Shown here one piece after another: positions 61,308-61,620 of a DNA stretch of 64,000 bases. Made by a program: the position numbers and the translations under genes. How positions within the stretch are numbered: position 1 is the stretch's first letter; each line of letters begins with the position of its first letter. Below the pieces are notes generated by a model, which saw only the letters and a list, made by a program, of their open reading frames with translations, had not been told where the DNA came from and made no database searches. This DNA comes from Flavobacteriales bacterium (GTDB lineage Bacteria; Bacteroidota; Bacteroidia; CAIKAF01): assembly GCA_025451235.1 (NCBI GenBank), contig JANWKT010000017.1, positions 124,001 through 188,000 on the forward strand, given 5' to 3'.

Positions 61308-61469
61308 CTAGCCTGCCTTTTTCTTCTTGTCCCCTTTTTTGCTTTTATCTCCTTTATAACCTATTTCTTTTCGTTCACGGCTGTCCATATCATCCCTTAT
61401 TTCGGGACGTGGCTTTTTCGACATACCTTGTTTGCTTTGATGGTTGCTGTTGTTTCTGGACGTTTTCAT
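61308..61469 (-). CDS. Small Lys-rich protein (53 aa) downstream of the TPP riboswitch
   Basis: MKTSRNNSNHQSKQGMSKKPRPEIRDDMDSRERKEIGYKGDKSKKGDKKKKAG; the longer track ORF (to 61568) translates the riboswitch and is rejected. Confidence 0.6.
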   Translation of the reverse strand: MKTSRNNSNHQSKQGMSKKPRPEIRDDMDSRERKEIGYKGDKSKKGDKKKKAG

Positions 61470-61491
61470 ATTTTTCTTTGTTGCAGGGTGT

Positions 61492-61517
61492 AAAAAAGCC
61501 CCTGTTTTACCAGGGGC
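61492..61517 (-). terminator. Intrinsic terminator directly after the TPP aptamer
   Basis: Minus strand GCCCCTG-gtaaaa-CAGGGGC-TTTTTT. Confidence 0.92.
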
Positions 61518-61525
61518 CATAGTTA

Positions 61526-61620
61526 GATCACCGTTTTCTTTCGCCGGAATTACCCGGATCAAGTTCAATGGGTTTATTTCTCAGATTTCTCTTTTGGAAT
61601 CTCCCCTATGTTCGGTTATC
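61526..61620 (-). ncRNA. TPP (thiamine pyrophosphate) riboswitch aptamer
   Basis: Minus strand: GATaACCG (P1)...AGGGG (P2) AGATT..AATCT (P3) CTGAGAAATAA ACCC (P2') GAACTTGATC CCGG-GTAATT-CCGG (P5) CGAAAGAAAA CGGTgATC (P1'). Confidence 0.92.

What the first reader, a model, noticed from the sequence alone, without database searches (positions are those of the whole stretch)
61308..61620. TPP riboswitch plus terminator controlling a 53-aa Lys-rich ORF, with no thiamine gene nearby
The minus strand carries a near-complete TPP aptamer: P1 GATaACCG/CGGTgATC, P2 GGGG/ACCC, P3 AGATT/AATCT, CTGAGA, GAACTTGATC, CCGGGTAATTCCGG. It is followed at once by a strong intrinsic terminator (GCCCCTGGTAAAACAGGGGCTTTTTT). 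TPP riboswitches are established regulators of thiamine synthesis, salvage and transport genes. Here the next ORF is MKTSRNNSNHQSKQGMSKKPRPEIRDDMDSRERKEIGYKGDKSKKGDKKKKAG, and the next gene is an SDR with its own promoter-like box. No thi gene is present in 64 kb. Possible readings: a new TPP-regulated small protein, a riboswitch-terminated ncRNA acting in trans, or a remnant of a lost thiamine locus. The AGGGG of P2 could pair with the CCCCT of the terminator as an antiterminator (inference).
Basis: partly seen in the sequence, partly recalled or inferred. Interest (0 to 1): 0.85.

Follow-up and report, generated by a model that had tools for sequence, protein, structure and literature searches.

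The report
TPP riboswitch outside the thiamine genes
A genuine vitamin-B1 (TPP) sensing RNA followed by a transcription stop signal sits in front of a small conserved protein gene instead of a thiamine gene, and it belongs to a small, previously unremarked group of such RNAs in Bacteroidota that lie before stress-type genes or before no gene at all.

Summary
The minus strand carries a complete TPP aptamer (RF00059, 52.3 bits, E 2.9e-9; Rfam's cut-off is 54.3), a strong terminator, and 22 nt later a 53-aa ORF. No thiamine gene lies nearby. It is probably not a remnant. The ORF belongs to a Bacteroidota small-protein family (941 relatives). The genome's other TPP riboswitch precedes an ordinary TonB-dependent receptor.

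Surveying 177 TPP aptamers from Bacteroidia, I found 13 not next to thiamine or transport genes. They stand before this ORF, OsmC plus this ORF, other small proteins, CPA2 antiporters, PEP synthase or a methyltransferase; four have no convincing ORF. These 13 share an anatomy rare elsewhere: a TGGYAY box 28-46 nt upstream (11/13 against 2/164) and a terminator directly downstream (11/13 against 11/164). Ten, including the window's, form an exclusive clade. Seven of eight readable clade members carry A where 149 of 150 canonical aptamers carry U.

Best explanation: a TPP-class riboswitch lineage that left the thiamine regulon; here it probably controls the 53-aa ORF by termination. Rivals are a free-standing TPP-responsive sRNA and a changed ligand. 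No binding or expression was measured. Only three of 13 loci show a clear antiterminator, and the window's is weak. The window's locus also lacks the TGGYAY box.

The parts
61518..61617 (-). TPP riboswitch aptamer (P2-P5 with CTGAGA, AACTTGA, GGCGAAAG)
   Evidence: RF00059 52.3 bits, E 2.9e-9, model 1-105; member of an exclusive clade of ten non-thiamine TPP aptamers
61613..61620 (-). P1 5' arm GATaACCG
   Evidence: sequence; pairs in the minimum-energy fold
61526..61533 (-). P1 3' arm CGGTgATC
   Evidence: sequence; fold
61492..61517 (-). intrinsic terminator GGCCCCTG-gtaaaa-CAGGGGC + T6
   Evidence: terminator scan; formed in the minimum-energy fold
61308..61469 (-). 53-aa Lys-rich ORF, Bacteroidota small-protein family with KPRPEIRDDMDSR core
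   Evidence: 15 homologous loci in named genomes, alignment, 941 homologues E<=1e-4; no Pfam or NCBIfam family
61630..61637 (-). candidate -7 box gATATTTG (one mismatch to Bacteroidota TAnnTTTG) for the riboswitch transcript
   Evidence: inference from sequence and from box positions in other TPP loci
61670..61677 (-). alternative upstream box TATCTTTG
   Evidence: pattern match; inference
60413..61210 (-). SDR oxidoreductase, separate unit with own TACCTTTG box (61234-61227); not the likely target
   Evidence: Pfam PF13561; box and gene kept in G013 without the riboswitch block
61722..61910 (-). upstream DUF6496 small protein, neighbour only
   Evidence: PF20106, 87.5 bits

Best explanation
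It is a TPP-class riboswitch of a Bacteroidota lineage that has moved out of the thiamine regulon. RNA polymerase starts just upstream and makes the aptamer. When TPP is bound, the aptamer is held and the terminator ends the transcript as a short RNA of about 130 nt. When TPP is scarce, the terminator is bypassed and the 53-aa ORF, which probably has no promoter of its own, is read. Shown here by computation: the aptamer, the terminator, the conserved ORF, the lack of a recognisable promoter between them, and recurrence of the same anatomy at 12 other loci not next to thiamine genes. Inferred: that TPP is the ligand, the direction of switching, and that the ORF is the biological target.
For: RF00059 match with intact CTGAGA, TGA and GCG motifs and P1-P5. 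The ORF starts 22 nt after the T run with no recognisable promoter between. In G020 a clade sister (RF00059, 61.6 bits) stands before OsmC and then the same ORF. In G233 and G415 a 76-aa ORF starts about 25 nt after the hairpin. Ten of 13 non-thiamine aptamers form an exclusive clade, support 0.917. TGGYAY upstream box 11/13 against 2/164, and terminator 11/13 against 11/164. A 9-bp or longer antiterminator is visible in G438 (AAUAAACCC with GGGUUUAUU), and alternatives in G383 and G428. The ORF family sits with OsmC, Hsp20-like, PEP synthase and FMN-reductase-like genes elsewhere.
Against: Most relatives of the ORF have no TPP aptamer nearby. Four of ten clade members have no convincing downstream ORF. 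For the window's RNA the best fold without the terminator is 14 kcal/mol less stable than with it (-25.9 against -39.8), so strong ligand-independent termination is possible. The window's locus lacks the TGGYAY box shared by 11 of 13. Clade members carry A in place of a nearly invariant U beside the pocket. No ligand binding or expression data exist.
Confidence: 0.5

Rival explanations
1. A free-standing, TPP-responsive small RNA: promoter, aptamer and terminator are the functional unit, the downstream gene is incidental, and the terminated RNA acts in trans (pairing with mRNAs or binding a protein) or accumulates according to TPP.
For: Four of ten clade members (G020:C68, G326, G432, G429) have no convincing ORF after the terminator. 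Downstream genes differ among the rest. Aptamer and terminator fold as independent compatible modules in most members. The P3 loop is alike in several families. Precedent: SreA, Rli55 and EutX are riboswitch-derived trans-acting RNAs (PMC8383071).
Against: In G000, G020:C7, G233, G415, G438 and G312 an ORF starts within about 60 nt of the hairpin with little room for a known promoter type. No target was identified.
Confidence: 0.22
2. A ligand-changed TPP variant: the fold is kept but the RNA senses a related compound, for instance a thiamine-derived nucleotide made in starvation.
For: Clade members carry A at the position where 149 of 150 canonical aptamers carry U, 7 of 8 readable, plus one extra J3-2 nucleotide and a U-A second pair in P4. 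G312 keeps all stems and the terminator but has CTATGA, TTA and GCA in place of the three core motifs. Genes are not of thiamine metabolism. Variant riboswitches hidden inside known classes are documented (PMC7266159). AThTP is made in carbon starvation in E. coli (PMC1976097).
Against: The pocket motifs CTGAGA, TGA and GCG are intact in the window's copy. A at the changed position is also known in ordinary TPP aptamers that carry P3a (PMC2258182). The CTTGA state also occurs in 15 canonical aptamers.
Confidence: 0.13
3. Remnant of a lost thiamine locus, decaying and without function.
For: Rfam score below the gathering cut-off. Only one of 16 genomes of the family has it. The locus is at a synteny break against G013.
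Against: Stems, pocket motifs and terminator are intact. Similar elements occur before non-thiamine genes in other families as one clade. The nearest relatives are not thiamine-locus aptamers.
Confidence: 0.07

Closest known systems
TPP riboswitch (THI element, Rfam RF00059)
   Same: P1-P5 architecture, CTGAGA, TGA and GCG motifs, significant covariance-model score
   Different: No thiamine synthesis, salvage or transport gene follows; U-to-A change beside the pocket; most members of this group have a different upstream box; below the gathering score in the window
Canonical Bacteroidota TPP riboswitches (thiS/thiC, OMthi TonB receptor, pnuT; PMC5613172, PMC7366714)
   Same: Same phylum, same aptamer class, present in the same genome at C19
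   Different: Those mostly have TAnnTTTG 5-40 nt upstream and usually no terminator next to the aptamer, and precede thiamine genes
Riboswitch-derived trans-acting RNAs (SreA/SreB, Rli55, EutX; PMC8383071)
   Same: Ligand-binding leader that can end as a short RNA at a terminator
   Different: No trans target shown; different ligand classes and phylum
sigma54 stress regulon of Bacteroidota (PMC9723704, PMC12316311)
   Same: TGGYAY resembles the -24 element; stress-type genes; RpoN present in 65 of 66 genomes searched
   Different: -12 element imperfect (TTK followed by C, A or T); the window's own locus lacks the box

Membership tests
TPP riboswitch (RF00059) | covariance-model match | tested here: met
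   52.3 bits, E 2.9e-9, full length, but 2 bits under the gathering score
TPP riboswitch (RF00059) | core motifs CTGAGA, UGA after P4, GCG before P4 3' strand | tested here: met
   all present in the window's copy; lost in relative G312
TPP riboswitch (RF00059) | stems P1 to P5 | tested here: met
   minimum-energy fold; P1 offset by 4-5 nt on the 5' side
TPP riboswitch (RF00059) | selective TPP binding | not testable with these tools
   needs in-line probing or ITC
TPP riboswitch of the thiamine regulon | adjacent thiamine synthesis, salvage or transport gene | tested here: not met
   no thi gene in window; 53-aa ORF and SDR downstream
transcription-terminating riboswitch | intrinsic terminator after the aptamer | tested here: met
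transcription-terminating riboswitch | mutually exclusive antiterminator | tested here: inconclusive
   clear in G438, possible in G383 and G428, weak in the window
non-thiamine TPP clade of this report | groups with the clade in an aptamer tree | tested here: met
   10 of 10 members exclusive, support 0.917
non-thiamine TPP loci of this report | TGGYAY box 28-46 nt upstream (common, not universal) | tested here: not met
   absent in the window and in G432; present in 11 of the 13 non-thiamine loci
trans-acting riboswitch RNA | short RNA with a trans target | not testable with these tools
   needs RNA-seq and a target screen

The most novel reading that the evidence does not exclude
A subfamily of TPP-type aptamers in Bacteroidota has been recruited to a sigma54-linked stress programme, where a thiamine compound (TPP, or a starvation-made derivative such as AThTP) is read as a signal of metabolic state, partly through free-standing terminated RNAs.
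Probability: 0.15. Interest if true: 0.9.

Novelty: new variant of a known kind. Interest (0 to 1): 0.68.

Why it matters
TPP riboswitches are textbook feedback regulators of thiamine genes. A recurrent lineage with its own upstream element, its own terminator and stress-type or absent target genes would mean that cells use the TPP pool as a signal beyond vitamin supply. It also gives a defined set of 13 short RNAs with which to test ligand drift and trans-action of an old riboswitch class.

Tried and rejected
Remnant of a thiamine locus: disfavoured by recurrence and clade. SDR as the target: it has its own box and is kept without the riboswitch in G013. TPP control as a general property of the 53-aa family: no aptamer within the fetched flanks of the 15 homologous loci found by peptide search; only G000 and G020 have it adjacent. 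First Pfam and NCBIfam scans: no family for the ORF. Order-level searches: G000's order and G020's order hold only 16 and 6 genomes. The second RpoN copy (12 of 24 genomes carrying a non-thiamine TPP or the ORF, 0 of 42 others) is suggestive but confounded by relatedness, and G000 has one copy. Literature searches found no report of TPP riboswitches before OsmC or PEP synthase; most subscription papers and bioRxiv are not held.

Full report
1. The observation. On the minus strand at 61617-61518 cmscan finds RF00059 (TPP) with 52.3 bits and E 2.9e-9 over the whole model. The Rfam gathering score is 54.3, so a routine annotation would miss it. P1 (GATaACCG/CGGTgATC), P2, P3, P4 and P5 form in the minimum-energy fold of the leader, together with the terminator. 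The terminator is GGCCCCTGgtaaaaCAGGGGCTTTTTT (61517-61492). The ATG of the 53-aa ORF lies at 61469. Only 22 nt separate the T run from the ATG and no TAnnTTTG box lies there, so the ORF must be read through the terminator unless an unrecognised promoter exists. The SDR gene further on has its own TACCTTTG box, which is kept in same-genus genome G013 together with SDR, DUF502 and the following genes, whereas the DUF6496-aptamer-ORF block is absent there. G013 is only 77% complete, but that contig reads through the junction. Thiamine and transport genes from other TPP loci have no counterpart near the site.

2. The genome and its family. The genome has a second TPP aptamer (71.9 bits) before a TonB-dependent receptor. 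Fifteen of 16 genomes of the family have a TPP match; each of the other 14 has exactly one, and those whose downstream gene could be read precede a TonB-dependent receptor. The window's copy is an extra one.

3. The ORF. Its family has 15 loci in named Bacteroidota genomes found by peptide pattern, with invariant P..IRDD.DSR, and 941 relatives in the large protein set. No Pfam or NCBIfam model covers it. Its neighbours elsewhere include OsmC, an Hsp20-like protein, NADPH-dependent FMN-reductase-like proteins and PEP synthase (read from the translations). None of these loci has a TPP aptamer in the fetched flanks.

4. A relative with the same pairing. DNA similarity flagged 75 bases of the aptamer in G020, another family. 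There a TPP aptamer (61.6 bits) is followed by a hairpin, an OsmC gene (TIGR03562) and the same ORF.

5. The wider group. A model of these two (R1) was searched in 396 Bacteroidia genomes. Four hits stood out: G000, G020, G326 and G233. A model of eight members (R3) gave the same four above 90 bits, with the next at 70. Searches of related and ORF-bearing genomes added G415, G432, G438, G429, G428 and G436. Fetching 116 further TPP loci added G020:C68, G383 and G312.

6. Survey. Of 177 TPP aptamers, 13 lie away from thiamine or transport genes and carry the box, the terminator or both. A few more could not be assigned for lack of sequence or of an ORF (L071, L200, L219). The 13 have TGGYAY 28-46 nt upstream in 11 cases against 2 of 164, and a terminator directly downstream in 11 against 11 of 164 (Fisher 6e-14 and 5e-10; descriptive only, since the genomes are related and the sample was partly chosen by likeness to the window's aptamer). 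Canonical aptamers mostly show TAnnTTTG instead. Downstream of the 13: the 53-aa ORF (G000), OsmC plus the ORF (G020:C7), a 76-aa Pro-rich ORF (G233, G415), a 147-aa ORF (G312), a Methyltransf_28 protein (G438), CPA2-type antiporters (G428, G383), PEP synthase (G436), and no convincing ORF (G020:C68, G326, G432, G429).

7. Relationship. In a tree of 170 aptamers, ten of the 13 form an exclusive clade with support 0.917. The two antiporter-linked ones form a separate pair, and the PEP-synthase one stands alone. Sequences are short, so the support is moderate. Seven of eight readable clade members carry A where 149 of 150 readable canonical ones carry U. By my reading that U is one partner of the pair bridging P3 and P3a, and A-G there is known in ordinary TPP aptamers with P3a (PMC2258182), so this does not prove a changed ligand. 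G312 has lost all three core motifs while keeping stems and terminator.

8. Mechanism. With the terminator forbidden, G438 forms a long antiterminator between aptamer AAUAAACCC and the terminator's 3' arm plus T run; G383 and G428 have alternatives within 3 to 6 kcal/mol. Kinetic folding could still allow it. I therefore put cis-acting, TPP-induced termination first at moderate confidence, with the free-standing RNA second.

9. Promoter. TGGYAY sits where a sigma54 -24 element would, and some members of the ORF family have a full TGGTATaaataTTGC upstream (L042, L043). RpoN is in 65 of 66 genomes, and sigma54 in this phylum serves chaperone and envelope-stress genes (PMC9723704, PMC12316311). 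The -12 part is poor in the TPP loci, and the window's own locus and G432 lack the box, so sigma54 control is only an inference for the group and is not claimed for the window.

10. Verdict. A real TPP-class riboswitch with a non-thiamine target, in a recurrent lineage: a new variant of a known kind. Its ligand, switching direction and target are untested.

Noticed in passing
L193 (G312:C7:274473-274555, minus): TPP-like RNA that keeps P1-P5, TGGCAT box and terminator but has CTATGA for CTGAGA, TTA for TGA and GCA for GCG: decayed or ligand-changed.
   Followed up: partly
G383, G312, G438, G429, G428, G436, G434, G433, G435, G431, G123, G365: Second RpoN (sigma54) copy in 12 of 24 genomes that carry a non-thiamine TPP or the 53-aa ORF, and in none of 42 others.
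   Followed up: partly
L105 (G428) and L171 (G383): TPP aptamer plus terminator before CPA2-type cation/proton antiporters, a separate pair in the aptamer tree.
   Followed up: partly
L114 (G436:C10): TPP aptamer with a long P3 arm, TGGCAC box and terminator before PEP synthase.
   Followed up: no
window 61308-61520 minus: A gene call of 70 aa in the protein set (P0009) starts at an ATG just before the terminator stem; homologues start at MKTSR, so the 53-aa start is likelier.
   Followed up: partly
L037 3254-3790: Two Flavo-1 RNAs (RF01705) in opposite orientation flank a tandem repeat coding MYIWLIQ just downstream of a 53-aa ORF homologue.
   Followed up: no
window 61618-61625; L098, L099, L105 upstream of aptamer: The heptamer GTAAGAT lies just upstream of the aptamer in G000, G432, G438 and G428, perhaps near the start of transcription.
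   Followed up: no
window 61210-61620: Synteny with same-genus G013 ends just upstream of the SDR promoter; the DUF6496-riboswitch-ORF block is absent there.
   Followed up: yes
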